Assembly: GCF_035083965.1 (NCBI RefSeq)
Contig: NC_089725.1
Coordinates: 29,211,925-29,275,924 of the forward strand
DNA from: Branchiostoma lanceolatum
Lineage: Eukaryota; Chordata; Leptocardii; Amphioxiformes; Branchiostomatidae
Reading direction: 5' to 3'
Length of the DNA: 64,000 nucleotides
Position 1 is the stretch's first letter; the number at the start of each line of letters is the position of its first letter. A model generated the notes under the pieces. That model saw only the letters and a program-made list of their open reading frames with translations, was not told the origin of the DNA and searched no databases. Shown one piece after another: positions 1-62,779 of this stretch. The position numbers were made by a program, and so were the translations under genes.

Positions 1-416
1 ATGTGAGAGGCATCCATGTGTAAACTGTGCTGTGTGGTGTAGAAATATGTCGGCTTGGAGACTGTAGGAGTTGGATAGTGGGCCTTTTCCGCTTTGTGTA
101 TAAATGCGCCATCTTGTGCAACCGCCTCACGGGGTCAGTCGGTGCAGTTCAGTGACCTCTCGCAGAGCGCTGTTTCAAAGTGGGCGTGAGGAGCCGATAC
201 GTCGACAGGATTTTTCGGTTTTTTATTTATTTGTAGGTTATACCCTAAACTCAAACATATTCGTTTTTCGTATTTCTCAAGTGCACCGCGCTATATTTTT
301 TACCGCGTCGAAGCTAGTCACCTTGGGGCCCTTAACTATATAAATCCCCATAGGCCGGAAACCGTGTTCTGCTACCTCAAGGCCAGTGTAACAGTGGGGT
401 TCAAGCGCCTCTGGTT

Positions 417-569
417 TAATCTCCAAGCAGATCTTCACGGTGCTCAAATCGTACAAGCTAGCCAGAGAAGCTCCTGTAAGCCAGGGAAGTTGTCAGGCAC
501 CGTCGCAAAAAAAAAAAATTCTGCCAGTTGGATACGGTCTTTACAACAGTTGGCTCTGCTTGGAGACTA
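417..569. mobile_element. Hairpin MITE, family M1 (copy a)
   Basis: Terminal inverted repeats TAATCTCCAAGCAGATCT (left) and the complement of TAGTCTCCAAGCAGAG (right) bound a 153-bp element. Flanking 9-mers CCTCTGGTT (408-416) and CCTCTGGTC (570-578) match at 8 of 9 positions, which reads as a target-site duplication of Mutator-like length. The two arms do not match each other beyond the tips: the left resembles copy b and the right resembles copies c and e, so it may be a recombinant. No coding capacity. Confidence 0.7.
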
Positions 570-2088: not shown

Positions 2089-5000
2089 TTAACCTGGAGG
2101 CGGTGATGTAGATGGCGGGGTTGGCCAGCATGACGGCGACGATCGGTGTGTAGGAGAAGACGTAATGTAAGACCAGGTGGAACCCCGCGGCACACTGCTG
2201 TATGCCCCCATCACCCGGTCTGGAACACAGCAAAACATAGAAACTTATCAATTATTCCCATTTACTGGTCTCCACCAAACCTACTAGCCTGATTGAATCG
2301 CGTTATAGTGGCCGACCCAACATCTTGCCCCGCCCTCTTCAAATGGCGGAGAGGAGACTCGGGAGCTGTAATAGGTTTGGATTCAAGTCTACCCTCTGCG
2401 AGGAGGGGCCATTACAGCGAAGTTTGTTAAATAGCCTAATTACAAACCAACTATGCTGGCTGAAAAATAGTAACATTTAATAGCGAAATCGAGACAATAC
2501 TTTAAATTTGCCAGGGAGTTTGGCCACTGAAGGTAACATTTGCCGGGTGAAATGTTACACATGATCACGAGAAACAACTGTGTAATAGACTGGGATGGGG
2601 CCAAGATGATAGAGGTGCAGAGATGATGAAGAAATGCACTCGTTGGATTGTGGATGTATCAGAAAATCTACTCAGGTCATGAACCATGATGAAGGGGGAT
2701 AAAACCTCGAGGGTCGTTTGGGACCGCATTCCTCACACTGCAGCAGCGGCACCTAGCTGCAGTGCGAAGTAGAACCAGTCAGTCCAGAGGAATGATACAG
2801 ACGGTCACCGAAATGTCGGCTAGGTACATTGCGTTGCGTTCAAAGAATTTTGATATCCTGATCCCTAATCTCCAAGCAGATCTATCGGTGGCAATGACAG
2901 TATCCAAAGGGCAAAAGCAGTATCATTGGCTAATAAAAATCTCTTTTCCCTTTGGATACTGTCATTGCCACCGATATGGATGGATCAGAGGAAAATCTAC
3001 TCCAGTCACCAACTGTCATGAAGGGGGATATAATGAATGAATGAATGAAGACCTTTATTGTACATTCGTGCCCCGAGGGGCTAGATACAGGTCGTTTAAC
3101 AAAAACCTAACTAACATGTAACTTGTAAGTGACATAAACAGTGAAATATATACAGTACATGGTCTAGACATACATGGTAGACCAAAGTGATAAGCTAAGC
3201 TAATCCAGGTGAGTCAACTTCTTCTCGCTTCTTTGTACATGTGTAGATGTATGAACAGATCATGTTTCTGATATAAACTCTGTCGCCTTTGAGGCCACAT
3301 TCTTCACACCGTGCAGAAGCGACACCTAGCGTTGCCCTAAGGGAGGTGGCAGACGTAGACAGTCAGTTAGGTACAAACACTTAGTTGTGTACAAAGAGCC
3401 TTGTTATCCCCATCCCTACAACAGAATTAAAGAAAACGGAGTTCTTACGCTTCGGGCACCTCGAAGAAGACGCTGAACATGCTCAACCCCACAAACACCG
3501 CCGGGGCGCTCCAGCACAGGGCATGGTACAGCGGCATAGGTCTGCAGACGGAGAAAAAAAAACAATTTGTGAATTTTCCTGAACGGCACAATTGGTCAAT
3601 CATTCAATGGTAAGTGAGTTATCTATGATATATACATACACTTGTTTCGTTTCCGTTTATTCTATGCGAAGTGTAGACATGAGTTGTGCTCTAAAGGCAA
3701 ATAAACAAGTAAGTTATGGTTTTCATCTTGTAATTCAGTTTGTTTTGTTGGTTTATGAACAATACAGTACAATTTTCGAATGAAAGCTCATCTGTGTTGG
3801 TAGAATTCATAATGTTGCAATTTGAGCTTTTAACACATAGAAAACACTCACCTGTGCAAGTTTGTTCGTACACTTAACACGTAAATTTGCTGGTAGACTT
3901 TGAAGTACACACGTGAAACTAAGGTACCCTTAAACAAATGTTCAAACAAACAAATAACTGCGCGAGGGGAGTATTCGAGACTGCTGACACTTACACGTCC
4001 ATATTTTTGAGCTGCATGGTGATGTCTAAGGCGTACACCAGTGTCCACATGTACGTGGCGCTGTAGAAGTACAAGTTGATAATCTGCGGAAGAGAGGACA
4101 GACATCATCAGTGTCGGTTGACAGGATCCTGTATATTAGCCTGGGTACCATCCTCCGTAGTTTCCGCTGCCTCAATCGTTTCGCTAGATTGCGCCAGCGG
4201 TAACTACGGAGGATGGTACCCAGGCTACCTGTATATTGTGATGCCAGGTACCGGCGATGCATATTGGTCAGGACGTCCCGAGAAATTGTGGTACACCGGT
4301 TGCTCGAGGAACTGTGCAGACATACTCGGAAACGTTACGATATTTCATCCTCGTCTTTTTTGGAGATTAGCATAACTCGTGATTCCAAAGGATCTTAAAC
4401 CTGAATAGCACACACACACAAGTGCATAGTTGAATCATAGTTAGAATCCCTCATTTGGCTTTCAAATGCCAGGGCTTGGTATGCATCACTATCGAAAGCC
4501 ACTACGAGCACCATTGTACAATCATCATCAGACAGCTAGACATTAATCATTGATACATCACTGATTCATAATTGATACATCATTAATGTGTCAATGATAC
4601 ATCACTGATAAATATAATTTATACATATAATTGATACATACCTCTATGAACTCTTAACTCAACCTCTATGAAAAGCGGCCCTGGTGGCCGAATAGAGCAA
4701 TTCAGTCGAAGGCACAAACAAAACGAACCTCTATAGTACTGCCCACATATATAGCCGTGAGTCCCTGCGCCGGCACGTAGACGCCGGGGCCGACCTCTAG
4801 CGGCGGGTCGAACACAAGGATGCCTACAGCCCGGGCTATCACACCTGTAAGGTTTAAAGTGGTGACGTTAGAACTCATGTCTATCCTACCAACTGACGAA
4901 ATTCAAATCTAATTTAGGAATAGAGTCCGGGCTCAGACTATGCGAATTGTTCGTTAGTAACGCACGGTGTGTGTTCAAAACATGAAATCGTGGAAACCAT

Positions 5001-6888: not shown

Positions 6889-8604
6889 CTAATCTAATGG
6901 TTTAATACGGACCGGCTGCACAAACGACCCAGTCCAAAAAGAAGTCATCAGCAAACAGTGTAATAGTATTAGTGTCAGTAGTTAAATTAAGACTAGAGTA
7001 GTCATATGTTACATTGTTCATCATTATCTGTTCGTCCACTCTGTGTTACATGTACATGTACATGTACATGTACTTGCAATTAGCCTACGGGCAGGAATTT
7101 GCAATTAACTTTCTATTAAAAGCCAAAAAAATGGCCCAGAGAGCCTGCTATGGAGGCTAGCTAGCGTTCTCGCTCAGAACGTTCTTTCGTCTTGGCTTTT
7201 TATTTTCTTTTTTCAATAACAAAAATATAAACAGAGATTGATAAATAAATCCCCCCTCAGTTGAAGTTTGTTCCTTTGAATTGCCCACAGCTAAACAGGA
7301 AATAGATAAATACTGACATCATACATAACAATTAGTCGTGCCTTACGCCTTAGATAAAGTTCCCCACTAACCTCGATGCCTTTATTGTTTCTTTTCGGGC
7401 GTAGATTAACTAGAATTTTGAAGGTTTCGCCGGCGTTGTCTGCAGGCTCTTCGAGTCGTGGCTGTGAAGACCGATTATCCCATATTTTTACAACAACTTG
7501 CAGTTTCCTGATAATGTCGAGGTTCTGATTGTCTACCCGAGGTCTGATAGCTAGGTAGCAGCCACTCTATTGTTAAAAGGCACTTATGTTGCAGCGTTAC
7601 ATAGATCGCTGCTGACATGCGGACTCAAAACGTCGATACGACGATAGGACAACCCTACATGCAGCCGTATCGTTTTCGCGCCTTGACTCTACAACAAACT
7701 GTAAAAACACGTACAACTGATCAGTGCATGATGCACCGTGATAAACACGCACCAGAGCTGTTCAATGTAACCTAGTATTTCCAAAACACATACAGGTGTG
7801 AAAAGGCAGACAAGACTCTTGTACAAGAACGCTCTAAAGACGCTGGTTTCAATAATGTCCCCCGCAGAAGAACTTTTTTTACCTACAACTGTAGAACAGA
7901 CAACTTAATAAGACTCGCAATTACAGCTAGACAGATATCCAAATGTGAAGTCAGTCTTCTATGTCTTACAAAGTGTATACTGCCAGTGCCCTGCCTCTAG
8001 AGACAGGTGCTATGATTATTGCATAACGAATATAGATAAGATTCCACATGTAACTCAAAGTACCTTTCAATTCAGATGTGCTTCTGTGTACAACGCTGTC
8101 CTGGCTGTGTGAAGACTGGTGTAGACTTTAAAGATTCCGTGTCGGGAATCCTTATGCAACTCGAGAGTACATTTTAGCCTCTCAGTTTCGCAGTGCTTCT
8201 ATCAATTTACGTACCACGAGTCCCGTGTTGCCGCTTGGATCCTTTTTGACTCCGCCATGCTGTAGAATTCCTTTAGAGACACTTAACAGAAACAGCAGTG
8301 AAATAAGTTCGATATCATCAAGTAAAAGGTCAGTGAGTGACAGCAATATATCATCCAGGCGACTAGGCAGAGTAGGTAACAAACTAGGGAAAGAGCATCA
8401 TGTGATGCAGGCATCAGCTGACTGAACCAGGAGCACATGACTCAAACCCGCAGGCTAAAATCTACCCACTCCCCATAGGCGTGACGTGCGGCTCAATTAT
8501 ATGCTTTTGTTATGTAACGTGTTTGGCATGGACGAACGATTAAGCAGTTACCTGCTTTTCCAGTTACAACCGCATGGCGTCGTGGTACGTCCACGAATTT
8601 GTTG
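6889..8604. other. Mostly unannotated intergenic stretch
   Basis: Holds a short (TGTACA)n run near 7050-7075, the displaced 169-bp-repeat fragment near 7155-7260, and a weak candidate first exon on the minus strand (8258-8215, see findings). I see no other gene. The overlapping frames at 8182-8425 have no recognisable domain. Confidence 0.4.
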
Positions 8605-9135
8605 AAGTACTGCAAATGCAGAAATGTTGGCGGTGGTTTAATGTTTAGCGGTTTTGAAGTACTGTAAATGCAGAAATGTTCGCGGTGGTTTAATATTCGC
8701 GGTTTTGCAGTACTGTAAATTCAGAAATGTTCGCGGTGGTTTAATTTGAAGTACTGCAAATGCAGAAATGTTCCCGGTGGTTTGATGTTCGCGGTTTTGA
8801 AGTACTGTAAATGCAGAAATGTTCGCGGTGGTTTAATATTCGCGGTTTTGAAGTACTGTAAATTCAGAAATGTTCTCGGTGGTTTAATGTTTGCGGTTTT
8901 GAAGTACTGTAAATGCAGAAACGTTGGCGGTGGTTTAATGTTCGTGGTTTTGAAGTACTGTTAATGCAGAAATGTTCCCGGTGGTTTAATGGTCGCGGTT
9001 TTGAAGTACTGTTCATGCAGAAATGTTCGCGGTGGTTAAATGTTCGCGGTTTTGAAGTACTGTAAATACAGAATTGTTCGCGGTGGTTTAATGGTCGCGG
9101 TTTTGAAGTACTGTAAATGCAGAAATGTTCGCTCA
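8605..9135 (+). repeat. 51-bp minisatellite derived from M2 MITE end
   Basis: Eleven units, each starting GAAGTACTGTAAATGCAGAA and continuing ATGTTCGCGGTGGTTTAAT. The unit is the terminal segment of the dispersed CGCGGTGGTTTT element (family M2). The opposite end of the same element follows at about 9165-9260 (AACCACCGCGAACACTCC). The array therefore looks like one M2 copy whose left end has expanded in tandem. Frames through it on both strands are artefacts. Confidence 0.85.
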
Positions 9136-10452: not shown

Positions 10453-11524
10453 ATATATCGATAAGAACATCACAATCTTCCCCAACAACCTCTGCTTGGA
10501 GAGCCTGCTAAGGAGGCTATAACACCCCCTTCCCTTTCCACGTGGTTCAAAATCAAACATGCGTCGAATTTATAGTCTCACTGATTATCACTCATGCATT
10601 TCTTCGAGTGGGTATATGAATGAGTCCGGCCTTAAAATCAAATGGCTGCAAAAAAAAATGAATATGATTATCGGTAAGCAGGTCACAATCTTCCCCCACC
10701 AACCTCTGCTTGGAGAGTATGTGGTATGACGAAACCCGTTCCTATGTCAATGTCGACCGAACCTTCACCGCACCTTCACCGATCCTAGAGGAAGAATCTC
10801 GCTCGACCAGCCAGCTCTTTGTTCTGTTAGAGGTGACATCACCTTAGAACATTCTCGTGACAACACTGAAAATTGTCGCCTGTACAAAATCTCCGCACCA
10901 AGTTGGACTCTCCGCATAGATCCATACGTCTGAAGCTGACCATCGCTGTTTCAAGGTAAGGGTCGCTAAAATGTGCTCATCAGTCAATAGGTACGGGAAG
11001 GGGTAAGGTAAACAACGCATAGGTATGTCCACCTGGATAGCGACCCACGGTACGGTATAAATCGTCCGGTTAGAGATCGCAACGTGCAACATTCTACTCC
11101 AAGTATTTCAGTTTAATGTTTGGACCACCATACAAAATCACGAGCGGTCAAAACAACTGTAAGCCCTTCCCTTTTCTGGTTCTTGTACGTGTCACTTCAA
11201 AGTTCAACAACCCCGTAAAGTGACAGTGAGCTTAGCTAGCGTAGATAATTCCTAAGGTCCTTTATACTAGTATTCCATTTCTGAAAAACTAGGCACTGTG
11301 ATAAACATCAGAACGATTTCCTGAAAAGTCGAAAACGGCTTTGTTGTGGAACGTGCTTCGGACTGACCAAATGCGCATGTTTACTACGGTCTGAATGTTT
11401 CATTTGTAAATAAACTAGTGTTGTTAACTTGTCATCTACTGGTGCGGGCATCCTGTTTTGTGTCCTGGTCGTCTGACGTATTTTATCAAACCTGCCTTTA
11501 CCGCCTGAATGCTAATGCTGCTAA

Positions 11525-11829: not shown

Positions 11830-14800
11830 ATGAGGCTTGTGTGCAGCCTGGTCGCGGCGCTTCTCTGCTGGGGCGCCGTGTCGCCCGAAAAATCCATCTA
11901 CCCCAAGCAGCGAGCGGACTGTAGCTGCGCTACCGAGCACGGCTCCTTCCACGACCACCACGCGGTGCTCCTGGACGGGTCCCGTAACGTCAGCCTAGCC
12001 GAGTACCGCGGCACGACCCTCCTGGTGGTGGTGGTGGCCTCCTTCTGAGGGTTCACCCACCAGTATCCCGCCATGAACGCACTTAAAGAGAGGATGGTCG
12101 ACCAGCTGGGATTCGATTTCGACATCCTGGCTTTTCCGACCAACAAGTTTGGCCTACAGGAGCCCGGGAGAAACGACGAGATTCTCAACGTTCTGAAGTA
12201 AGTTTAACACCGCCGATAAACAACAACCTGTTACACCAGTTCTGTCACACCTATTCTTCTCCATACTGCAACCTGTTACCCTAGTTCTACCACAGCTGTT
12301 CTTTTATCTATACTGCAGACTGCGTTCGTGTTCCAAATAGACACGAGTGTATGGTTTGAACGTGAGCCTCTTAGCGTTTGAATTTCATAGTTTAGTAGTT
12401 GACATGGCATCACAGGGGCTACAGCCAAACAGTTTTTAACGCCCCCTTGTAATTATGTTGATTAGTGACCTGTATATAACCCAGTGGGTATATGTGTACA
12501 ATAAAGGTCTTCATTCATTCATTCATTATTCCGTCCCTCGCCCCGTGTAGGTATGTGAGGCCGGGCGGTGGCTACGTGCCATCCTTCCCCCTTTTTCAAA
12601 AGGGAGACTGCAACGGAGAGAAGGAACAGTCGCTCTTCACTTATCTGAAGGTAAGGAACGTTTTAAGAGTTGTCTCACGCTCATCACACACATGAGTAGT
12701 TTCATTCAGGTTGTTAAATCACTGGATAACCAAGGTCTTTACACACAGCCATTACATAACCATCGGTTGACGTTTCGGTGACCGTCTGTCAACTGCCTCA
12801 GGGCGAAACTAACTGTGTTTTTTTATAATTTTTATTCCTATATGTTTACTGAGTATTAGGCAGAGAGCGATTGCTTATTTGAAGCCTTCTACTCAACACA
12901 TACAACAAAGAGACATAATGACATGCATAGATACAAAATGGATAAAAGGAAAATAACAGTAGACAGTACAAGCTGGTATCTATCATTAAATGAATCTGCC
13001 TGTACAATGGATGTAAGCATGAACTACTAGTATATCGAGCATGTTACAGTTTTGTAAGTATGAGAGTGACGTGGAACCTCGTAACAGAAGAGAACATAAT
13101 GAACCGTCGTTAAGTAGTTGAAGGTCAGTTATGTTGGAAAGGGATATTAACATGGTACTTCTTTGCGTGGTATAAAGTTTACAGTGTAAGCGGTTAAGTT
13201 TACAGTGTAAGAACTAACAACTGGTTCGACCTCGGGATCGCACTGCAGCTAGGTGTCGCTGCTGTAGTGTGAAAAATGTGGTCCCAAACGGGGCTAATGT
13301 GAAAGACAGAGAGGATGCACTCGTAAATCTACTCCATGGCCAGTCATGAACCGTGATGTGGGGGATATATAAACTCAGTCATGTTTGGGACACACTGCAT
13401 CTATATCTACTTGGGAATCATTAGACCTTTCTTTGCTTTTACTGTGTCCGTGTCGAGCATACCATTGCCACGGGATGATGGTTAGACAGGCATGCATGTT
13501 GTGTTCTTGTACAGTTTATCTAGACAGATTGCGCTGTGAATATTCATCACGAATAGCGAATGATTGGCCTCATGGCAAGCAGCCGCGCACTGGACGTGCA
13601 CAATGTATGAAGTGACTGAACTCTTAAAATACAAATCGGCAGAGCCAGAGGTAGCTGTTATTTGTAGAAAAAAAAAAGCGATTAATGACAATGACAATGA
13701 ACTTTATTGCATATACATTAATGACGAAACAATATACACAGCTCGAATTACATCTCAACATCATTACCCCTGGTGAAGTAAATAACTGATCTGAGACTGT
13801 TTGATTGTGTGTGCCCGTGCAGAGCTGCTGTCCCCCCGCCAGCGACATGATAATCTACAACCCGTCCAGCCTGTACTGGAAGCCGCTGCGGGCCGGAGAT
13901 GTCCGCTGGAACTTCGAGAAGTTTCTGGTGGATCCGGAGGGGAAGGCTGTGATGAGGTGAGGGCAAAAATCCTAGCTAGCCTGGAAACTATACCATCGTG
14001 AGCTCGCAGCTATTTCTACGGTAATTTGAGTGCTGCCACATTTCGGCTACTTTAAAGAACCCACCACACGTATTGATAAAAGTATAGGACCATCCCAGTG
14101 TGAATGGATCAAACCCTACAGTCAGGTCTCTGGCTGGACATCTTGCCGAAGTGTGATGTTTACCTGTCATACCAATCCTTCCAGAAAGGTGGAAATTCTC
14201 CATAGATACATTTAGAAAATGTCGTAAAAGATTTTACGTGTTTACAAAATATTGCAACAGGATTTTCGGCAGGATGAAAAAATCAATCTATTTCAAGGTG
14301 ATCCAATCCTCAAGGTTGCTGATTAACTGCATGGTTTGATCATCGACTGATTAGGAACTGTTTATTCAGCTTGTAAGTTAACGTAAAAACTGGTATGCTG
14401 TAGGTTATGCGAACAAACACATTTGTAGATACACACTATCTAGCTATAGCTTTCCGGAAGTGGCATGACTGGCGCAATGGTGTGTGAGTGCTCGCCTTGC
14501 ATCCGGGAGGCCGCAGACTCAAAACCCAGTGCGGCCGGGTCATACCGAAGACTTTAGAAATGGTATTGCTTTCTCTGTTCAGCACTCAGTACTAGAAGCT
14601 TATGAGAAAGAGTATTGTAGTTAACACACAACACTACTAGTAGATTGCCCCATGCCGTATTGCTTGCACAAATATAATAATGGTTCATTCATCAAATGTG
14701 TGGCCCAAGGGCTGCAGAAATGAAAATTGGCATCACCCCTATGCATCTGATCGAGACGCCCGTGTGACTTTAACCTCATCTCCAAGCAGATCTAACGGTG

Positions 14801-15112
14801 GCAAAGGCCATATACAACTGGCAAAAAGAGTTTTTATACCCACCTTGGTAGCCACGATGTCGACCACCATGGGTGGGTATAAAAACTCATTTTGCCAGTT
14901 GGATACGGCCTTTGCCACCGTTAGATCTGCTTGGAGATTAAGCGTTTAACCTGATTCACCTCCCCGTGTATCCATGCAGGTTCACCGCCCCTGTCGAGCC
15001 TGTGGAGATGGAGCGCGTTATCGAAGAGTTCCTCCGGACGTGGAAGGCCAAAGAACAGAGAGAAATTAGCGACATCGAATCCCTTCTATCAGTTCTGAGG
15101 ACAGAGCAGTAA
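11830..15112 (+). CDS. Secreted selenoprotein glutathione peroxidase (GPX3-like)
   Basis: Reduces peroxides with glutathione or thioredoxin-type donors; the signal-like start [18 protein letters not shown] suggests secretion, as for plasma GPX3. Exons: 11830-12197, 12551-12650, 13823-13956, 14980-15112; phases agree and give 244 residues. An in-frame TGA at 12046-12048 (residue 73) sits exactly where the family has selenocysteine ([20 protein letters not shown]). The rest of the catalytic set is present: Gln in FGLQEP and Trp-Asn in [28 protein letters not shown] closely matches GPX3. It is slightly longer than human GPX3 (226 aa), mainly at both ends. A C-terminal low-complexity acidic/basic tail follows RFTAPVEP. 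A candidate SECIS lies in the 3'UTR (15660-15725) and a poly(A) signal at about 15788. A plain frame scan would cut this gene at the TGA. Confidence 0.93.
12419..12530 (+). repeat. Retroelement 3' tail with (ATTC)n
   Basis: ACCTGTATATAACCCAGTGG then AATAAAGGTCTTCATTCATT, complementary to the repeats at 3032-3240 and 20165-20330. Lies in peroxidase intron 1 immediately before exon 2. Confidence 0.5.
14045..14135 (+). repeat. Dispersed repeat (GTGAGTGG-TCAAACC family)
   Basis: AAAGAACCCACCACACGTAT, then AGTATAGGACCATCCCAGTG and TGAATGGATCAAACCCTACA. Same family as at 1083-1345 and 23570-23675; in peroxidase intron 3. Confidence 0.55.
14464..14560 (+). repeat. tRNA-derived SINE-like sequence
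   Basis: TGGCGCAATGGTGTGTGAGT resembles box A of tRNA-derived SINEs, and CGCAGACTCAAAACCC is a degenerate box B about 45 bp later. No cloverleaf. Intronic in the peroxidase gene. Confidence 0.45.
14778..14940. mobile_element. Near-perfect hairpin MITE, family M1 (copy e)
   Basis: ATCTCCAAGCAGATCT and its exact complement close a stem that pairs for about 70 bp per arm (ACGGTGGCAAAGGCCATAT opposite GGCCTTTGCCACCGT), with the tip ACCCACC-TTGG. It lies about 40 bp upstream of the last peroxidase exon. Flanks share TTTAACC, so a 9-bp duplication may be partly eroded. Confidence 0.75.
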
Positions 15113-15140: not shown

Positions 15141-15352
15141 TACTCTGTAAATGTATTTAAGTTCGCGGGGATTTAACTTCACGGTATGGAGAATATATTT
15201 GGGAGTATTCGCGGTGTTTTTTTAGTTAGCGATTGGTAACAACGTAGAAGGAGTGGGCAGAAGATTTTCGCGGTAGTTTTAAGTTCGCGTCGAAGAGGTT
15301 ACAGTGAAAACCGCGAACATTAAACCACCACGAACTCAAATGCATTTACAGT
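15141..15352. mobile_element. M2 element in peroxidase 3'UTR
   Basis: Left TTACTCTGTAAATG and right CATTTACAGTAA are inverted ends. Inside are GTTCGCGGGGATTTAAC and TTCGCGGTAGTTTTAAGTTC, facing AACCACCACGAACTC. It would be transcribed between the peroxidase stop codon and the candidate SECIS. Confidence 0.7.
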
Positions 15353-20898: not shown

Positions 20899-21085
20899 TA
20901 CTCTCCAAGCAGAGGAGGGGTTCCGGTTGATTTTTGACGTGTTTTTGTCGGGCTTTCTACTTTGCCTTTTTTAGGGGTCTCTTCAAACCCCAGTTTGAAG
21001 GGAAAAAAAGTAGAAAGTCCGACAAAAACATATAAAAACACGTCAAAAACCAGCCGGAACCCCTCCTCGATCTGCCTGGAGAGTA
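20899..21085. mobile_element. M1 hairpin MITE in LRR gene 3'UTR
   Basis: TACTCTCCAAGCAG and the complement of TACTCTCCAGGCAGATC close 187 bp. Arms pair for about 80 nt (GGGGTTCCGGTTGATTTTTG opposite AAAACCAGCCGGAACCCC). It starts 16 bp after the LRR stop codon, so the mRNA would carry a long hairpin. The stem sequence is unlike other M1 copies. Confidence 0.75.
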
Positions 21086-25400: not shown

Positions 25401-28400
25401 GAAGGGCCACACTTGGAGCACGTTTAGGGTCACAACACATTCAAAAGAGCTGGGGTCCATCCTAGTGTGAGTGGATCAAACCTTACAGTCCTTTCTTACA
25501 AAACTGCAAAACTGATGTGTAATGCCTAAAGGAAGTTTAACGACAAACATACCTTGCTTGGAAGTACAGTGAGGTGATGTTGCAGACCTTCCCGGGTCCG
25601 TGGATGAAGAACTCCACAAGTTTGCTCTTCTCAACATCCATGTCTTCCTGCAGGAAATGACAGACAGTTCTTCATGTCAACTGCTGTTGCATAATTATGC
25701 AGCACCAGTATTTGACAATATTGGTCTGGCGGATATGCTGATAGCCTATATGATACATAGTATATCTAATTCTTTGATTCTCTGACATTTTCAACAAGGA
25801 ATTTATCGAGGGGACAACACAAAAACAAAGGTCTGGGAGAAAAACCTGAATCTGATAATAGCCTCCTTTGCAGACTTTCAATGCTAGGTTGTTCAGTGAC
25901 AATCCCATGTTTGAGGAGAGCCACACCTCGAGCACATTCAAGAACCCACCACACTTATGGAAAAGAGTAGGGGTCCATGCCTGTGCCAGTGGATCAAACC
26001 TTACAGTCCTAACACAACTTTATATTTAGCACAAAAAACTGGTGTTACACTGGTGGCAGTTTACCAGTTATATAAAACAAACAAACGAGCAAACAAGCAA
26101 ACAGACAAACAAACAAACATATCTTGTTCCTCACCTGTGAGAGCTGACCAGGGAAGAACGTGATGATGACCATCTTGTCCCCGGCCATGTTGGTCCTGAT
26201 GGTGATCTCCCTCCAGTGTCCTCCCTCATGGAACAGGATGCAGGCGGGCAGGGGGGAGGACCGGATGTACTGCTGATACAGCTGGGACATAGGAACAGAG
26301 GACACTCACTCACTATCTGGCTTATCTGCTCTTGTTCCCTGTTACAGGATTAGACTTTTAGGAAAGGATGCTTTGTGACCCTTCCAATCCCGGAGACAAA
26401 AATCAGTACGAAAGATCAAATGTATGGCTATGCTGATTTATTCATTTAGGGGATTGCAGAAACAAACACAGACAGACAGATAGACAGACAGACAGACACA
26501 CACACACACAAACACAGAGACATGCCCAAAGCAGTCTACATTATCTCAGTCTGTTTAAGATTCATCCAAAAAAAAGAAGAGAAAAGAAACAGTTGTAGGC
26601 CTTACAAGCAAACAGAGCTAGCTATTCTCTTTGGGATAGATCTACTCATCAATTATAAATAGTTTGATTAAAGTCATACAGAAAAAATTCTGTCCTTTAC
26701 ACTTCTTATCACCATGATCACTACTTTGCTCTGAAATATGACAGCCGTTTAGTTTTTGTGTCTGTTATATAAGAATATTACTACTTGTTACTTACCCTGG
26801 CCACCTGTAGATGTGCCTCAGGCATGTTGATGCACCTGTCTGCCGGGACACAGATGATGTTATATCCTGGGGGACGGGAAGGTTGGAGCAAGTTAGACAG
26901 CATAGTTTCTACAGGACAAACTGATTGTAATGTCTTTAATAGTTTTAGACTGACAGATACTTTCAGTGGGTACAAAAGCTAGGGGGGAGGGGCTGCAAGG
27001 GTGGTCCCGACAAATTCAGCAGAATAACCTACAAATTACAAACTGAAGCAGCAAGGAATCTTGCAGCCCTGTGTGCAACTAGGCACTACAAGGGTCTGAA
27101 CGATATTTCATACATACGTCTCCCTCTGCCTGCAAACAGCCCCACAGTCTTCTCATTCCCGTCCAGACCCTTGTTAATGGAGAAGCTGGACTTGTTTCTG
27201 TAACCTTCTGTGATGGGCTGAACCAGGAAACATTCACAGGATATAAAAGTCATTAGACTTAAAAAAATTTCCAAATGGAAACTATGCTGTCCCAGTGTGC
27301 TCAACAAAGGATGATTGCAATGGTTACAGCTCACATAGATGAAGTCAAAACTGCTTAAGAAGACCATTCAGGGGACCGATTGACAGGTGGTCACAATGGA
27401 AATAATCATCAAAGGGACTACCAAAAAGAAGTCACAAGGTAGTCCTCATGTAGAGGTGGCCACTTGTAAAAGTTTGACACCATTGACAGACTCACAGAAG
27501 GTTTGGTAGCCTCCAGTGGGCAGCACATGCCGCCGTTCCGCTCAGCTTGCCTCAGGACGGGTGAATCTGGAGGACAGACTGCCGACAGCTTCCTGGCCAA
27601 GATCTTCAGCGCATGGGCTGCTTCATGATACTTCCACTGGGATGTCACAAATACAATAATTTCAGAACTTAAAAATGGGGTAGCCATAGTATGTTATAAA
27701 TTCCACACACTTACAAGTTACAACCCAATAAATGGGAATCATGCAGCTGCAGATTTCTTACTGAGGGATGACTGCAGTGAGAAAGATGTCGGTTAGCTGA
27801 GAAATGAATCTTCTCTTCTTCATACTGCATACCGGTAAGCCAGTTACTGACACCTGTATCATGATAGCCTGATCTCTACGGTCTCTACGATTCGGCTTAG
27901 GGGTGTTTTACCTACTCTCCAAGCAGATCTACACGGTGCACCGAAAATCGTATATGCTAGCCAGAGAAGCCAGATAAGCTCCAGTCTGCACCATAGGCTT
28001 ATCTGGCTGACTGGAGCTTCTCTGGCTAGCATATACGATTTTCGGTGCACCGTGTAGATCTGCTTGGAGATTATGTTTTACTGGGCCCAGTCTCCTTTAT
28101 TGAGCAGTTTCTGTCAGCCTGTCTACTTAGCTGCCATATAGAGTTTTGCTACCACTGTAGCGGCTAATTAAGCCAAGGCCGTAAACTACTAGTAACCCCC
28201 AAGCAGGCTAATCTGTCTGGGTGGGCAGGAACCACTCCCAGCGCCTTAGAGATACCGGGTAGCTCCCGACGGTATGGTTTCCAGGCTAATATCATGACAG
28301 ATAATCTTTTCAACATATGTAGTTGGTGAATGGAACTCCCTGCCTGTTGAAACTCCCACAGGTTAAGCTGTTTAGAGTAAGACAGGGAGCCAGCCATACC

Positions 28401-31107: not shown

Positions 31108-32802
31108 TCAGTTCAGTATGGTAACACAGGCATGGGCATACAGACCTGTGGCCATGGATCCCACACAACTGAGTGACTGGGTTTTGGGATCAAGGCACAA
31201 GACTTCTTTGTTTACCTTGTCTTTGTCACAGCCTCCAAAGATATAAACCTTCCCACCAAACACAGTCATTCCACAAAAGCGTGGAATACCAGTTGCTACC
31301 ACGCTCCAGAGACCGTCATCTTTGCTAGGTGTAAAACAGAAAATCCGTGAACGTAGCCTAGCATAAATGCTGCCATTGAAAACTGAAGCTGTCACAAAAG
31401 CTGCTGTTATGGGCATGTCTTGTAGTGAGTGCCACTGGGTGTCTCCTGGGCTGAAGGAGTACACTGTTGATGTTGACTTGTCTTCAGCATTGCGTCCGCC
31501 CATCACATATATCCTGCTGTCCAACACTGCGACAGCATGCTCGTACCTTGGCTGTGGAAGAGGTACACCAGCGGTCCACTTGTTCTGGCTTCCGTCATAG
31601 ACCTCAACAGAAGAAAGTGCAGATCCATTGATCAGCCCACCGATTGCATACACTTTTCCATGTAGCACTGCCAGCTTGTTATAGTGCCGCTCTGAGTTCA
31701 TCGAAGCAAGAGTGGAGCAAGAGAGCAGTTTTGGTTTGTACAAGAACACGTCTTTGCCAATAGACATGATGATCTCACTGGTACCTAGAACAGCTGCTGG
31801 AAATACTGTCTGAGCAAGCTGGTCCATCCTGGACAAGTAAATCCAACTTGTACTTGTCGGCTCAGGCTCGGCACAGTAGGTCATTTGGATGAATTGGGAG
31901 AAATCATCAGGATTAACTGTACTGCCTTGTCTCTTTATCCCTCCCATAACCACGACTGCCTCCCTCAGACCACTGACACGGCGGGGACGGGTGCGGGGTG
32001 ACCTGACCTCTCCTGGAAACAGCTGGTGCTTAAGAGTTTCTTTCACAATATCCTGGCCAGATGTGCAGAATGATCTATTGCTTAGTACATTCTCCACGAA
32101 GTACACCTTGTCCATGAAGGGGAACCTGACCAGTTCCATCAGCTCTCTCATCTCCTCCTTCCTCTGCTCGTTGTCATGGTCAATCCAAGCCATCACCGCT
32201 GAGTACACAGTTTCTTCAGAGGCATTGAGATCGTCTGATGAGATGAGTGTGATGAGCTGGTCCTTAGTCAAGGAGAGGAACTCAGGTGTTTTGCTGACTG
32301 CTGCAAACTCCTTCAAGGCACACAATCTTGCTTTCTTCTCCAGGTCTGGGCAGGACAGCATGTTGCCCACCTGCATCATCTGCAGACAGTCTTTAGCACT
32401 CAGGTTGTTGGATATGAAGGTCACGCATGCATCATACACAGGTAGGATCTGGAAGAAGTTGGCCCCTTCCAGCAGTTCTACAGCATTGCTTTCTGTGATG
32501 GTGACTTTTGACGTGTAGGCGTAGTCAACAAGAAGCTGCAATGTGTCAGGGCTGACTCCATGGATGTCTACTTTTTGCTGCCTGCTCTCGAGATGCCCAG
32601 AACAGAACATTGCATGAAAGTATTCACTGCAAACAGCCAAAATGTTTCTATGGCATGGGATCTCTTTTCCCGAGATGCAAAGGGTAACATCAACCAGTAG
32701 CTTGTTGGAACGCAGTTCCTGCAAGCCCTGCAAGAGGGAGCCTAGATGTGGATTGTGGCAGAAGTTGAATGATGGCTGTGATCTCTGTACTGCAGCCATC
32801 AT
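31108..32802 (-). CDS. BTB-BACK-Kelch protein, KLHL-like (564 aa)
   Basis: Likely substrate adaptor of a Cullin-3 ubiquitin ligase. The coding region is one uninterrupted exon. BTB domain about residues 22-125 (LLVDVTLCISGKEIPCHRNI, then HAMFCSGHLES). BACK domain about 130-235 (LSAKDCLQMMQVGNMLSCPD, SEETVYSAVMAWIDHD). Kelch repeats about 275-560 with Gly-Gly pairs (AIGGLINGS, VMGGRNAEDKS, IFGGCDKDK). An AG acceptor (TTGTTTTGCAG) ends 9 bp before the start codon, so a 5'UTR intron is likely; it holds an M1 MITE. The start has two consecutive ATG codons; the upstream one is used here. Which KLHL subfamily is not decided. Confidence 0.9.
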   Translation of the reverse strand: MMAAVQRSQPSFNFCHNPHLGSLLQGLQELRSNKLLVDVTLCISGKEIPCHRNILAVCSEYFHAMFCSGHLESRQQKVDIHGVSPDTLQLLVDYAYTSKVTITESNAVELLEGANFFQILPVYDACVTFISNNLSAKDCLQMMQVGNMLSCPDLEKKARLCALKEFAAVSKTPEFLSLTKDQLITLISSDDLNASEETVYSAVMAWIDHDNEQRKEEMRELMELVRFPFMDKVYFVENVLSNRSFCTSGQDIVKETLKHQLFPGEVRSPRTRPRRVSGLREAVVVMGGIKRQGSTVNPDDFSQFIQMTYCAEPEPTSTSWIYLSRMDQLAQTVFPAAVLGTSEIIMSIGKDVFLYKPKLLSCSTLASMNSERHYNKLAVLHGKVYAIGGLINGSALSSVEVYDGSQNKWTAGVPLPQPRYEHAVAVLDSRIYVMGGRNAEDKSTSTVYSFSPGDTQWHSLQDMPITAAFVTASVFNGSIYARLRSRIFCFTPSKDDGLWSVVATGIPRFCGMTVFGGKVYIFGGCDKDKVNKEVLCLDPKTQSLSCVGSMATGLYAHACVTILN

Positions 32803-32842
32803 GCGCTAATCCTGCAAAACAACAAACAGGGTAGTGAGTACC

Positions 32843-32973
32843 TAGTCTCCAACCAGACCCAATGGATTGCAAAGACCGTATCCAACTGGAAGAAGGAGCT
32901 TGTAATGCAAAACGTACTTCCTCTGCCAGTTTGATACGGTCTTTATGCAACCTATAGATCTGCTTGGAGATTA
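32843..32973. mobile_element. M1 hairpin MITE (copy c), perfect 9-bp duplication
   Basis: TAGTCTCCAACCAGA and the complement of TAATCTCCAAGCAGATCT, flanked on both sides by GTGAGTACC (32834-32842 and 32974-32982). Arm GACCGTATCCAACTGG is matched by CCAGTTTGATACGGTC. Lies 40 bp upstream of the KLHL-like start codon, inside the presumed 5'UTR intron. Confidence 0.85.
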
Positions 32974-33281
32974 GTGAGTACCCACAACAAGGAATTATTA
33001 ATAAATTATGTCTCAGGACACTATTGACATCTTCTCTAGGATAGAATCACAGGATATAAACACCTGTGTCTTAAAAAACACGTAAGTACTTACTAAGTTA
33101 CTAGTACTTTGATATCCTCTTCATCACTAGGCCATTTATTTTATGCTTTAAAAACATTTTTAACCTCTTTGCTATAATTAGTGTAAAGAGCAAATAGGCT
33201 TACCGAGAATGCTTAAAGATAAAATCATTGGTAGGGCTGTAGTGAAATAATTGGTATGACACACCAGAAATAGTTGGCGGA

Positions 33282-35452: not shown

Positions 35453-36446
35453 TGGGAAATTATGGCTGACTGTCCTAAAGAAAGTAAAAAGCCACAGAAT
35501 GCTGAAACACAGACAGAGGAGTTCAAGTTTGCTGTGCCAACTACTCACGTCCCGAACAAAGACTTCTTTAAGTCAGATGATGAAGTTAGATATTATACCG
35601 GTCTGCCTTCTTATAAAGTCCTTATGATTGTTTTTGACCACGTTGCGCCATTTGTTACACGCACAAGTCAGAGTCTGGATAAATTCCAGGAATGTATGCT
35701 AGTTCTTATGAAACTGACAAAACATGCCGTTTCTGTATCTGGCTTACTGGTTTGATGTCTCCCCTTCCATTGTTTCACAGATATTCGACACGTGGATAGT
35801 AGCATTGGACATCAGACTGTCTTGTTTTGTTTTCTGGCCAAACAGAGAGGATTTGTTGAGGACTATGCAGATGTGCTTTAAGTACACATTTGGTCAGAAA
35901 GTGACTGCCATCATTGACTGTTTGGAAGTGTCCATTGACAAACCTGCAAATCTCTCGGCCCGTGAACAAACATTCTCGTCACACATGCAACGTCATACCC
36001 TCAAAGTTCTAATTGGTATTACTCCTCTGGGGACAATGTCTTTTGTGTCCAAGGCTTGGGGTGGATGTGCCTCAAACATGTTCCTAGCAGAGACCTCTGG
36101 TTTCTTGGACAACCTGCTACCAGGGGACACAGTTCTTGTGGGAGGTAAGAATTGTGATAGCAATGGGCTGGAACAAGGAGAGTTTGTAATGGGTGCTTTC
36201 ACAAAGGGGGAGGCACAGCTAGAGCTGACTGATGTGGAAGGGTTCAGGGGTATTGCCAGTGTAAGAACACATGTTGAGAAACTTATCGGCCTTTTGAGCA
36301 GGAAGTACAAGTTCTTAGAAGCAACTGTTCCCATAGATCACTTAGTCTGTGATGATTCCCAAGTACCGCCTATCGACCGAATCATCAGAATATGCTCAGC
36401 GCTTGTGAATCTCGGTCCTCCAGTTGAATCATCAGGATCTGATTAG
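35453..36446 (+). pseudogene. ISL2EU/Harbinger-type DDE transposase, decayed
   Basis: Related to DDE_Tnp_4 nucleases (HARBI1/ISL2EU group). Frame one (to about 35755) has ETQTEEFKFAVPTTHVPN, VRYYTGLPSYKVL and ECMLVLMKLTK. A one-step frame change near 35725 leads to frame two with YLAYWFDVSPSIVSQIFDTW, IIDCLEVSIDKPANLSAREQ, TLKVLIGITPLGTMSFVSKA, WGG, SGFLDNLLPGD and RTHVEKLIGLLSRKY. The first catalytic Asp (IIDC) and the last Glu (HVEKLIG) are visible. The second Asp, usually in VLADRGF, is replaced by VLVGGKNC. With that loss and the frame break it is unlikely to be active. The N-terminal THAP zinc finger expected in this group was not found. Terminal repeats were not located. Confidence 0.75.
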
Positions 36447-37118: not shown

Positions 37119-39877
37119 CTATCTTCTCATCAACGCCATTGACACCAGTCTGGACATCTTCACTCTAAATGATAGATAGATGATATAGAGATTCCTCTTG
37201 TACCACTCTCTGCAAAAAAGAAGAAGAATGAAACATTATTTGATCTATTATTTTCCTAAAGTTTAAAGCTTTGTACATGTACAATACTATCTGTCTAGAC
37301 AAGAATTAGCTTCTACCAGGCTCCGTCCTATTGTTGGGAAAATAGTAGAAATCAGCCAAGGTACTCCGCTATACAGGGTAGTTCGCTATACAGTGAAGCT
37401 CCATTATCGATGGACGCTATACAGGGTAGTCCGCTATACAGTGAAGCTCCACCATCGATAATGGAGCTTCACTGTATAGCGGACTACCCTGTATAGCGGA
37501 GTACCTCGGCTGATTTCTACTATTTTCCCAACGATAGGACGGAGCCTGGTATAGGCTAGCCAAGAATGTCATAAAGTCGTATATGCTAGCCTAGCGACTT
37601 GATGCCACCATTGACATTATGATATGTTTCCCTTTGTCTGACTTACCGCTGATACTGCAGTTGGCTGGGCTGATGCTCAGTCAGGAATGTCCTGTAAAAC
37701 TCGGACATGTCTTCAGCTGGAGGCATTCTCTTACTTCCTGTAGGGAGAAAACAAAGATTTTACAATTACTGCAGATGTCCCTGTGAAGCTCAAGTTAGTT
37801 AAAAGCAATGTCCTCGAAGCAGAGTCCACAGGCTTTATTCATTCTATTGATGGCTTTTAGATCTATAGACAGTGTCCAAAAATTGGGAAGGGGGGAACAG
37901 ACTTACCCAACAGGCTCTATGGATTTAAAAATACAAGTACCTTTGCATGTCAATCAATGGTATGAGGAAAATACAACAGTCTCAGTGTGTGTGGGGACAC
38001 ATGTACATATGTATGTAATCACCAGGGAAACGGTGTCCCCTGTAAAAGGAGAGCGTCTAATTCCTGTGGGTTTTATCGTGCGCAGGGTATCCAAAACACA
38101 CTCTGACACCCTGCTAGCTAATAGTATGACAGTGACATGTACAGGACGTGGACGTCAAAAATGAGGACTTTTTAAATCCTTAGAAATTACCTCAGTGAAT
38201 ACTCACCATCAGTGCGGACTGAGTTGAAATCCTCTTTTTCCAGCCAGGTCCTGATAAAGTCTGCCTTCTCCTGTATGCCATGATGACATTGACAATCAGA
38301 AAAAAATTATTTGAATTCAAACCATTAATATTGATCCAAAACAAATAAATTTTTCTCTGTCATGAATTTGTCAGCCTTTTGGCTACCTTCTTTGCAGGGC
38401 TTGATAAAATGAAGAAATATTCTGAAGCAAAAAGGATGCAGTCAAATTTCTAGTACATATTTATTAATCAACTTGATTAACCTTCTCCCTGTTGCCTAAC
38501 TCTGTGACCAATGGCAATAGGGAATTGGGTGCCAAATGGCTACTTCAGAGTGCTATATAAAAGGTTAAACTACTCATGGAAGGAGTCAGACACCTTATTA
38601 AACTGCTGATTGTGGTCAGACCAGAAGGCCTGGTTCCACTTCTGTGTCTCTGCCCTCAGTTGTCGGAGTCTCTCCTCTGCCGCCGACTCTCCTGGGGGTA
38701 CCCTGAACTTGATGGGTCTGAGGTTCGAGCTGGGGTCTGCTGGGCCGATCCAGTCATGGACCATCTGGGACTGGGGTGGGGGCTGGGCGGCTAGACCAGG
38801 AACACTGGCCTGGGAAGCAATCAATAAAAATAAGGTAAAGGTAAAGCAGGCGTCTTCAATTGAGATGAAACATTAATGTCCAAGCAGATCTGCTCGTGGC
38901 AAGACAGTATCCATGGGCTGAAACAGTACTGTAGAAGCAGAAATGTTCGCGGGGATTCGATTTCGGGGTAGGGAGAAAATGGAGTGTTTGCGGTGGTTTG
39001 CGTTCACGTTGGAAACAATAGTAGTACTAGTACCATACTCTATAGTCACACAATGCAACGGCTTTTCGTGGTGGTTTTAAGTTCGCGGTAAAGTGTTCAC
39101 TGTGAAAACTATGAACATAAAACCACTGCAAACATTTCTGCATTTACAGTGCTGTATCTGGTGGCCGGTCCAATACTGTTTTGGCCCATGGATACTAGTA
39201 CTGTATTGCCACCGGTAGATCTGTTTGAAGATCAGTGAAACATGCCAGTAGTGAAATGCATCTTCCCTGTGTCTTGCGTTTTCAGCCAAGCGCACAAGTT
39301 TACCCTTTCTCTTCTTGATAAGTGTGTTGGGTTCTTTTATGAACAAATGCCTGAAGCTCCCACATACTAGTACACAGAGCCTAATTTCCTTAGTTCTAAC
39401 TTCTAAATGCATTTTGTGCGTGAGCATTCTTTAATTTTCCAACTACTATACGTATAAGGTCATCCATGCATTGAATTTGAAAACTGTACAGAAGCAGGGA
39501 AAATATTGATTAACAAGGCCTTCCATTGGCACCTAAACACACTGATGAGCACACTTTAGATCACTTAGAGCACACCTTGACCAAGGAGGTTGCCCCAACA
39601 TTTATGTTGATTACTTGACATTACATAAAGATACGCATTTGCAGGGTTGACCCTGTCACTAGCATTTGTTAACGTTACACAAAGGGTTTTATCTTTAATT
39701 TTGTACCATCTACATCTTAAACTTTACTGGGCAAACCCCTCCTGGGGCAGCCTAAATATCACCACGATCCTATAGCTACGACGTTACCTTCGCTTTGACT
39801 TTTCTCCTGCCAGCTGGGCGGGCTTTCATGGCGGCAGCATACGCGTTCCTTCCCGTACAGAAGGTTCGAATCATCAT
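37119..39877 (-). CDS. COA8: Cytochrome c oxidase assembly factor 8 (183 aa)
   Basis: Mitochondrial matrix/inner-membrane protein (also called APOPT1) needed for stable complex IV assembly. Exons in transcript order: 39877-39788, 38809-38594, 38270-38207, 37737-37647, 37209-37119; phases agree. N-terminus MMIRTFCTGRNAYAAAMKAR is basic, as in an import signal. Family blocks: VHDWIGPADPSSNLRPIKFR, ERLRQLRAETQKWNQAFWSD, EKADFIRTWLEKE, AEDMSEFYRTFLTEHQ and REWYKRNLYIIYLSF. Length is close to human (193-206 aa). Intron 1 holds an M1 MITE with an M2 element inside it. The start codon lies 369 bp from that of the divergent SR-like gene, suggesting a shared promoter. Confidence 0.93.
37316..37549. 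mobile_element. TA-flanked long hairpin element
   Basis: CCAGGCTCCGTCCTATTGTT and complement begin arms of about 100-130 bp, with TA on both outer sides (37314-37315 and 37550-37551). The left arm holds two head-to-tail copies of CGCTATACAGGGTAGT plus CGCTATACAGTGAAGCTCCA, of which the right arm matches one. It lies in the last COA8 intron. Confidence 0.8.
38874..39234. mobile_element. M1 MITE (copy d) hosting an M2 insertion
   Basis: TAATGTCCAAGCAGATCT and the complement of TGATCTTCAAACAGATCT. Flanks ATGAAACAT (38865-38873) and GTGAAACAT (39235-39243) match at 8 of 9. Arms GGCAAGACAGTATCCATGGG and CCCATGGATAC...GTATTGCC pair, but are held apart by the M2 element at 38927-39155. In COA8 intron 1. 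Confidence 0.85.
38927..39155. mobile_element. M2 element nested in M1
   Basis: Ends GTACTGTAGAAGCAGAAATG and CATTTCTGCATTTACAGTGC are inverted. Inside, GTTCGCGGGGATTCG and TTTCGTGGTGGTTTTAAGTT lie opposite complementary motifs. It splits an older M1 hairpin, which gives the order of insertion. Confidence 0.75.
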
Positions 39878-60889: not shown

Positions 60890-61792
60890 ATGGCAGCTAG
60901 TTGCGGATGGCTTTGGTCCATTATGTGGATCATCCTGCTGGTGATTATAGGCTGGCCGCTGGGGCTGCTCTGCGCCGTGCTCTACGTCTTTATATCCCCA
61001 TTCCAGGTAGGAACGCCAATTTTTCTCAGGCCTAAGAAAAAGTATACTGTAAATGCATGTTCGCGGTTTTCGCGGCGACCGTTTCACCACGAACTTAAAA
61101 CCACCGCGAACATTTTTGTCCAATGCTGTAGCAGCACATGACTAAAGCGCTGCCGCAAACTTAAAACAACCGCAAACACTCCATTTTCGCCTTAGCGCGA
61201 GATAAAAACCACGCGAATTTAAATGCATGTACAGTATTGTTTTTTTCCTTCAGTTTACCAGACCTACCCTAGCAAAAACTTACCGACCCCAGTAGAATTG
61301 TTTTACAAAGGACAGGAAATTTTCGATCTGACATCTGAATGATGTAAACGTTGTAGAATCGTTTTCCAACAGAACTGATTGTTCGTCAATCCTATAGGGA
61401 TATACCGTTAATTGTGTTGGATAAGAAGTGTTGTAGGAAGTTGGGCGTTTGTTCCAACAGACAGAAACTGTGACCGAGACGGGGGGAGATACAGGCATTC
61501 TGCGTCATTCTTCCCGATGAAGGCTGGAGTGTCACCAGCAATTTTGTCTCTGTTGGAACCAAAAAATAAGTTTCCTGTATTGTGAAACAATCGTATCTAA
61601 TTGCTTTTGCTGAGGCTCGACTCTAGAAAATAATTTGAAAAAAATCAATTTCCCATTAATCATTTCCCCTTCCCCCACCAGGCCTGTTGCTCGTGCGGAG
61701 GGTGCTCGGAGTTCATCAGTCTACTGAACAGAGGCGTGAACCTGCCGCTCACGTGCGCCAAGAACATGGTCACGCAGTCCCCGCCCTGCTAG
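60890..61792 (+). CDS. Conserved-looking membrane microprotein (75 aa)
   Basis: Two exons, 60890-61006 and 61682-61792, joined in phase 0. Residues 7-38 form one or two membrane helices (WLWSIMWIILLVIIGWPLG, LLCAVLYVFISPFQ). The C-terminal half is Cys-rich and probably soluble or membrane-apposed (ACCSCGGCSEFISLLNRGVN, LPLTCAKNMVTQSPPC). Gly-Trp-Pro inside the helix, the Cys cluster and the LTCAKNM block resemble small uncharacterised animal proteins I have seen in invertebrate sets; no function is known to me. An acceptor (TTCACAG) lies about 50 bp upstream of the ATG, implying a 5'UTR exon. The 3'UTR contains two M1 hairpins. AATAAA at 62780-62785. Confidence 0.75.
61047..61245. mobile_element. 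M2 element in microprotein intron
   Basis: TACTGTAAATGCATGTTCGC and TGCATGTACAGTA ends. Inner TTTCGCGGCGACCGTTTCAC and AACTTAAAACCACCGCGAAC, then a second inverted block AACTTAAAACAACCGC. This copy shows the full four-block order of the family. Confidence 0.75.
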
Positions 61793-61820: not shown

Positions 61821-61962
61821 TAGTCTCCAAGCAGATGTTGGGAAAAGGATCGTAGCGCTTTCTGAACCCCTTCTGTGTTCATACACGATCTATTGCTGTC
61901 TCAGGACTTATTAGGCACAGAAACCGTTGCGATCTTTCACTCCAAGATCTGCTTGGAGATTA
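61821..61962. mobile_element. M1 hairpin MITE in microprotein 3'UTR
   Basis: TAGTCTCCAAGCAGATGTTG and complement TAATCTCCAAGCAGATCTTG. The inner arms GAAAAGGATCGTAGCG and CGTTGCGATCTTTC pair loosely. Starts 28 bp after the stop codon. No clear target duplication. Confidence 0.65.
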
Positions 61963-62458: not shown

Positions 62459-62634
62459 TGATCTCCAAGAAGATGTAGGGTCCAACTCAGTGTTCTATGC
62501 GTTTTGGTGGAATTTAGTACATTCTTGTAGTGGTGTACCTCTCACTCTTTGCCTTCTACAGGGGGGGGGGGGGGGAAGAGAACAAGACCAATAACATGTG
62601 CAACTGACCTGGACCCTACATCTGCTTGGTGACA
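62459..62634. mobile_element. Second M1-like hairpin in the same 3'UTR
   Basis: ATCTCCAAGAAGATGTAGGG and GTCACCAAGCAGATGTAGGG (complement of the right end) with GTCCAACTCAG/CTGACCTGGAC beneath. It is interrupted by a 14-nt G run at about 62560-62573. Confidence 0.55.
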
Positions 62635-62779
62635 TCTACCAATATAGGAAATGTACTGTATTGAAATGTGTGCAACATGAGCCCCATATTGGAGCAATGT
62701 GTACTAAACTGGAATGATTCTCATTTTGTCATCCAAGTTTAAGTTAAAAGGCATCTTTGTCATAAATTCTAACGAACGA

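What the first reader, a model, noticed from the sequence alone, without database searches (positions are those of the whole stretch)
417..569. M1: a MITE family with constant tips, 9-bp target duplications and changing stems
At least nine copies share only TAxTCTCCAAGCAGATCT. Four show readable 9-bp duplications: 408/570 (8 of 9), 27904/28074 (8 of 9), 32834/32974 (9 of 9) and 38865/39235 (8 of 9). Tip plus duplication length point to the Mutator superfamily. Yet the 50-80 bp stems differ among copies (GGTGGCAAAGGCC, GTGCACCGAAAATC, GACCGTATCCAACTGG, GGGGTTCCGGTTG) while each arm still matches its own partner. Arms seem to be rewritten as pairs, for example by template switching, gene conversion or capture, instead of drifting independently.
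Basis: seen in the sequence. Interest (0 to 1): 0.75.

Follow-up and report, generated by a model that had tools for sequence, protein, structure and literature searches.

The report
Lancelet foldback MITEs with shared tips
This stretch of lancelet DNA carries about ten short, mostly hairpin-shaped jumping-gene remnants that share one end sequence and, in half of the two-ended cases, a clear 9-base scar of insertion; they are an ordinary kind of element, but one copy has two different arms, which argues against the idea that arms are always rewritten together.

Summary
The tip occurs far above chance (25 matches against 5.3 expected) at ten loci, eight with two facing tips. The four quoted 9-bp duplications are as described (33 of 36 positions; 0 of 14,833 flank re-pairings of all eight elements do as well). 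A fifth element (14776-14940) has a likely duplication with an indel (P=0.004); three have none.

The stem claim is only partly right. Two of the four quoted "different" stems (GGTGGCAAAGGCC, GACCGTATCCAACTGG) are one diverged stem, type A, found in five elements. Type B is distinct or very distant; the other loci have unrelated stems.

Best reading: non-autonomous foldback MITEs of Branchiostoma lanceolatum, moved in trans by a transposase that needs the tip; Mutator/Phantom is likely but unproven. Matching arms probably come from copying one end when a foldback line arises. New member of a known kind.

The parts
417..569 (.). E1: 153-bp element with unlike arms; left arm type B (417-484), right arm type A (510-569, read on -)
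   Evidence: BLAST spans
408..416 (+). E1 target duplication, left copy (right copy 570-578), 8 of 9
2866..2980 (.). E2: type-A foldback, left tip intact, right tip missing (right edge approximate; inverted arms reach about 2976)
10491..10719 (-). E3: two tips with alike stems in direct orientation (cores 10491-10502 and 10705-10716, both -), no facing partner found
14776..14940 (.). E4: type-A foldback, arms 96% complementary over 67 nt; probable duplication ACTTTAACC / AGCGTTTAACC (indel on one side)
20899..21085 (.). E5: foldback with a third stem (GGGGTTCCGGTTG); no target duplication detected
27913..28073 (.). E6: type-B foldback, arms 97% complementary over 61 nt; duplications 27904-27912 / 28074-28082, 8 of 9
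32843..32973 (.). E7: type-A element, stems about 79-80% alike; duplications 32834-32842 / 32974-32982, 9 of 9
38874..39234 (.). E8: type-A element holding a stretch related to another palindromic repeat; duplications 38865-38873 / 39235-39243, 8 of 9
61821..61962 (.). E9: tip pair with another stem, no target duplication detected
62459..62635 (.). E10: weaker tip pair with another stem, no target duplication detected

Best explanation
These are non-autonomous foldback MITEs of a cut-and-paste DNA transposon family in Branchiostoma lanceolatum. Shown: shared tip TA(N)TCTCCAAGCAGA(TCT), inverted arms, 9-bp duplications at four copies and probably a fifth, one common type-A stem, a type-B stem, and one element with one arm of each type. 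Inferred: a transposase made elsewhere in the genome recognises the tip, cuts the element out and inserts it with a 9-bp stagger; it tolerates unlike stems, since E1 sits inside an 8/9 duplication. Most likely (inferred) arms match within a copy because each foldback line began when one transposon end was copied in inverted orientation, for example during interrupted gap repair; arms then drift. E1 is either an internal-deletion derivative of a parent whose two ends were B and A, or a recombinant of two foldback types. The 9-bp duplication, long arms and foldback shape fit the Mutator/Phantom group best.
For: Tip excess. For E1, E6, E7, E8 the flanks match at 33/36 for length 9, and at 6/24, 10/28, 10/32, 11/40, 13/44, 15/48 for lengths 6, 7, 8, 10, 11, 12; 0 of 14,833 derangements over all eight elements. 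Type-A stems: 32 of the 36 arm pairs score at -log10 P of 2.0 or more against 5,000 random 42-mers; the four below that (1.1-1.9) all involve E8. E1 arms: diagnostic sites 19:0 for B on the left and 15:3 for A on the right; clade E1L+E6L+E6R bootstrap 1.0; E1L-E1R sisters in 0 of 300. E2 and E4 arms sisters, 0.91 and 0.98. A published Mutator/foldback family with mostly 9-bp duplications and MITE-like members, Tm1, PMC3169594 (passages, including part of the abstract).
Against: No autonomous element or transposase was found, and the genome was not available. Three of eight two-tipped elements (E5, E9, E10) show no duplication, and all three have other stems, so they may be older, or something else that shares the tip. 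Stems are short (36-42 nt), so trees are weak; the permutation test has only 24 outcomes. Results depend on the measure: E2L is closer to E8R than to its partner by pairwise identity without gaps, but not. The asymmetric-parent and recombinant readings of E1 are not separated.
Confidence: 0.72

Rival explanations
1. One reading: arms of a resident element are repeatedly rewritten as a pair, by gene conversion between arms or template switching at the hairpin, so stems change together while tips stay.
For: E2 and E4 arms are sisters although their stems share one ancestor; own-partner identity 0.80 against 0.66 across elements, best of 24 pairings; E7R and E8L are closest to their own partners.
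Against: E1 has unlike arms inside a duplication. E7L is as close to E4R as to its partner (0.80 each) and sister support for E7 is 0.15. E8R is closer to E2L (0.86) than to E8L (0.83). Two of the four quoted stems are one stem.
Confidence: 0.15
2. E1 is a late recombinant: an A/A foldback and a B/B foldback exchanged one arm, by ectopic recombination or template switching during repair, before E1 inserted.
For: Both foldback types are in the window (E4, E6); E1 arms match E4R over 60 bp and E6R over 68 bp; gap repair, template switching and exchange between copies are discussed for Galileo (PMC4168063, passages).
Against: The E1 spacer 484-512 matches nothing else in the window, and A and B show only marginal homology (P 0.01-0.06), so crossing over has little to work on.
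Confidence: 0.35
3. Not Mutator: another superfamily whose transposase makes duplications of about 9 bp (Merlin, for one), or an unclassified lancelet family.
For: No transposase linked; a MULE survey could not detect MULE transposases in B. floridae (PMC6446971, passages). That Merlin makes 8-9 bp duplications is recalled, not looked up.
Against: Long arms plus 8-11 bp duplications are given as typical of MULEs (PMC6446971, passages), and Tm1 joins a foldback shape with 9-bp duplications (PMC3169594, passages).
Confidence: 0.35
4. E5, E9, E10 and E3 belong to different transposon families that only resemble the tip.
For: No duplications at E5, E9, E10; the eight arms of E3, E5, E9, E10 do not align with type A (P 0.17-0.99 against random 36-mers, 0.23-0.94 against own shuffles).
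Against: The exact 12-nt core recurs at E3 (both tips), one end of E5 and both ends of E9; about 0.008 places are expected in 64 kb on both strands at equal base frequencies (my arithmetic, no call).
Confidence: 0.25

Closest known systems
Tm1 Mutator/Foldback family of Meloidogyne (PMC3169594; passages, including part of the abstract)
   Same: Foldback arms, MITE-like non-autonomous members, 8-10 bp (most often 9 bp) duplications in 45 of 53, arms of one element on average 93% alike, short end motifs that mark the family
   Different: Tm1 arms hold varying numbers of a ~14-bp motif and asymmetric 7-bp end motifs, and a member with a Phantom-like transposase is known; no such transposase was found here, and the motifs were not searched for
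Galileo (P superfamily, foldback-like TIRs, Drosophila; PMC4168063; passages, including part of the abstract)
   Same: Long inverted arms, two diverged TIR subfamilies, terminal 100 bp more constrained than the transposase segment, structural change ascribed to gap repair and recombination
   Different: 7-8 bp duplications with a target consensus; a transposase segment is known; one copy reaches 9 kb
LanceleTn MITEs of Branchiostoma (recalled; a mention of LanceletTn-2 was seen in PMC5802833, passages)
   Same: Short inverted-repeat elements of lancelets
   Different: Sequences not available here, so identity could not be checked

Membership tests
MITE | Short element with terminal inverted repeats | tested here: met
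   Eight two-tipped elements of 131-361 bp; the inner arms of E1 do not match each other beyond the tip
MITE | Target site duplication of constant length | tested here: met
   9 bp at four of eight, a fifth probable with an indel, three without
MITE | High copy number in the genome | not testable with these tools
   No genome held; ten loci in 64 kb
MITE | Autonomous partner with the same ends | not testable with these tools
   None recognised among 59 of 151 window ORFs scanned; genome not available
Mutator superfamily | 8-11 bp target duplications (length from PMC6446971, passages) | tested here: met
   9 bp
Mutator superfamily | MULE-type DDE transposase | not testable with these tools
   No MULE domain in 59 of 151 ORFs of 75 aa or more in the window; the other 92 and the rest of the genome unseen
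Tm1-like Mutator/Foldback | TIRs with varying numbers of a ~14-bp motif | not tested
   No dedicated search of the arms was made

The most novel reading that the evidence does not exclude
One parental transposon had a short shared tip but two unlike subterminal ends, B and A. E1 is its plain deletion derivative. The A/A foldbacks (E2, E4, E7, E8) and the B/B foldback (E6) arose separately, by inverted duplication of one end. If so, this family shows foldback MITEs being born repeatedly from single ends, and the stem sequence tells which end was copied.
Probability: 0.35. Interest if true: 0.5.

Novelty: new member of a known kind. Interest (0 to 1): 0.3.

Why it matters
How MITE arms come to be near-perfect palindromes is, to my knowledge, still argued over. 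A family in which one tip carries A/A, B/B and A/B arm combinations lets the competing answers (one-end inverted duplication, recombination, continuing conversion) be tested by counting combinations genome-wide. It also gives a tip sequence with which to look for a 9-bp-duplicating transposase in lancelets, where MULE presence was reported but a later survey could not confirm the transposase (PMC6446971, passages).

Tried and rejected
Conserved inner box AAAGAYCGTA about 25-31 bp from the element end: looked shared by eye, but outside type A no stem scores better than P=0.055 against random 42-mers; not claimed. Common origin of all stems: not supported for E3, E5, E9, E10 (P 0.17-0.99 against random 36-mers) and left open for type B (P 0.0097 against random 36-mers, 0.015-0.062 against own shuffles). 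RNA families: 0 Rfam matches at gathering scores. Literature by sequence: 13 letters of the tip in each orientation gave 0 papers; 'LanceleTn' gave 0 papers. Viral contigs: two exact stem patterns, 0 matches each. tRNA scan with the bacterial code: 0. Autonomous MULE in the window: one search listed 151 stop-to-stop ORFs of at least 75 aa that passed a composition filter; 59 distinct ones went to Pfam (60 entries, 37799-38161 given twice), none with a MULE domain; 92 were not scanned. Paper searches on arm conversion, template switching and MITE origin were read as listings, and only the two papers named (PMC3169594, PMC4168063) were opened from them.

Rows dropped before counts: six of the 25 tip matches (48, 4009, 24833, 36579, 53515, 58726), taken as chance; also 18090, 21824, 37812, 45457 and 57368. 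The arm permutation test uses only E2, E4, E7, E8; E1 and E6 were left out because they do not have two type-A arms; the start of the E2 right stem was set by hand because its tip is lost. The print was cut at 12,000 characters, within the E7 right-arm rows, so BLAST rows for later arms were not seen.

Full report
What the window is. The longest stop-to-stop ORF listed (31111-32805, minus) is a kelch-like 24 protein. Of the 120 listed of 342 hits, the named ones are Branchiostoma except P0118, Argopecten. I take the window as B. lanceolatum (inference). No genome was available to search, so everything below rests on 64 kb.

Observation. TCTCCAAGCAGATC with up to three mismatches occurs 25 times against 5.29 expected. 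Nineteen of these make ten loci: eight with facing tips (E1, E4-E10), E2 with one tip left, and E3 with two tips in direct orientation. The full 18-mer TAN-TCTCCAAGCAGATCT is exact at 7 ends at six loci, and the 12-nt core at 13 places. Nine-base flanks directly outside TAN match 8, 8, 9 and 8 of 9 at E1, E6, E7 and E8. At length 9 these four give 33 of 36, while lengths 6, 7, 8, 10, 11 and 12 give 6/24, 10/28, 10/32, 11/40, 13/44 and 15/48, which fixes the length. Over all eight two-tipped elements the total is 43 of 72; none of 14,833 derangements of right flanks reaches it. With gaps allowed, E4 also has a probable duplication (P=0.0039), while E5, E9 and E10 have none. The five elements with a clear or probable duplication carry type A or B stems; the three without carry other stems.

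Stems. Comparing the 42 bases inside the tip with 5,000 random 42-mers, the arms E1R, E2L, E2R, E4L, E4R, E7L, E7R, E8L and E8R form one group (type A; by eye CGGTGGC-AAAGRCCGTATCCAACTGGCA): 32 of 36 pairs reach -log10 P of 2.0 or more, and the four that do not all involve E8. E1L and E6 form a second group (type B). B against A is marginal (P 0.0097 against random 36-mers, 0.015-0.062 against own shuffles); the best single pair is E6R with E7R (-log10 P 3.0). E5 and E10 resemble each other weakly (1.3-2.6); E3 and E9 match other elements at 1.8 or less.

Arms and partners. In E4 and E6 the arms are 96% and 97% complementary over 67 and 61 nt. Among E2, E4, E7 and E8, own-partner identity averages 0.80 against 0.66 for other pairings, the best of 24; within that table E8 is an exception (own 0.60; E8L with E2R 0.68, E2L with E8R 0.66). 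In a distance tree of 12 arms, E2 and E4 arms are sisters (0.91, 0.98), E6 and E8 less firmly (0.68 each), E7 hardly (0.15) and E1 never (0 of 300). For E6 the lower value probably reflects E1L, which belongs to the same clade (1.0). E1 is the key case: at columns where both E4 arms differ from both E6 arms, its left arm matches E6 at 19 of 21 and E4 at 0; its right arm matches E4 at 15 of 22 and E6 at 3. Because E1 lies inside an 8/9 duplication, the mixed element probably existed before it inserted, or was altered without touching its flanks. In the first case its unlike arms show that a shared stem was not needed for insertion.

Mechanism. Shown: tip, duplication length, stem groups, mixed element. 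Inferred: trans-mobilisation by a transposase that reads the tip; origin of matched arms by inverted copying of one end when each foldback line arose; later drift. A parent with ends B and A explains A/A, B/B and A/B together, but recombination between foldbacks explains E1 about as well, and I cannot separate them. E8 is longer because it holds a stretch related (about 70-92% in pieces) to a palindromic repeat that also occurs at 48170-48375, near 61057-61242, near 15161-15352, and in the minisatellite at 8602-9132.

Comparison. Tm1 of root-knot nematodes is a Mutator/foldback family with mostly 9-bp duplications and MITE-like members, placed by its transposase in Phantom (PMC3169594, passages). 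Galileo shows two diverged TIR subfamilies, and its authors invoke gap repair, template switching and recombination (PMC4168063, passages). A MULE survey could not detect MULE transposases in B. floridae (PMC6446971, passages), so Mutator membership is left open here: the duplication length is met, the transposase is untested. No MULE domain was found in the 59 of 151 window ORFs that I scanned. Whether this tip is already in a repeat library such as Repbase could not be checked; text searches for 13 letters of the tip in both orientations found 0 papers, which says little because consensus sequences are rarely printed.

Verdict. A real, ordinary kind of element with one instructive copy. The claim of paired rewriting is not the best account.

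Noticed in passing
35718-36443 (+): ORF with a DDE_Tnp_4 match and a sub-threshold HTH_Tnp_4 match, a Harbinger-type transposase fragment by recalled family knowledge; not linked to the M1 tips.
   Followed up: partly
50626-52149 (-): ORF with a reverse transcriptase match and a sub-threshold GIY-YIG match, which suggests a Penelope-like element (name recalled); inverted arms 49940-50059 / 50602-50721 lie beside it.
   Followed up: partly
37307-37558: 107-nt inverted repeat, 95% complementary, 38-nt loop, first of the 59 inverted pairs reported.
   Followed up: no
8602-9132: 51-bp minisatellite (10.6 copies) whose unit matches the repeat nested in E8: a palindromic element and a tandem array share sequence.
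   Followed up: partly
578-664: tRNA-like stretch directly right of E1 with A-box- and B-box-like motifs by eye, possibly a SINE; ARAGORN with the bacterial code reports no tRNA and BLAST finds no second copy in the window.
   Followed up: partly
10489-10719: Two M1-like tips with alike stems (88% over 49 bp) point the same way 214 bp apart, without facing partners found: perhaps tandem ends of a larger element.
   Followed up: partly
38573-38872 (-): Stop-to-stop ORF with a COA8 (cytochrome c oxidase assembly factor 8) match over residues 39-99 of 100; the ORF, not the domain match, reaches to two bases before E8.
   Followed up: no
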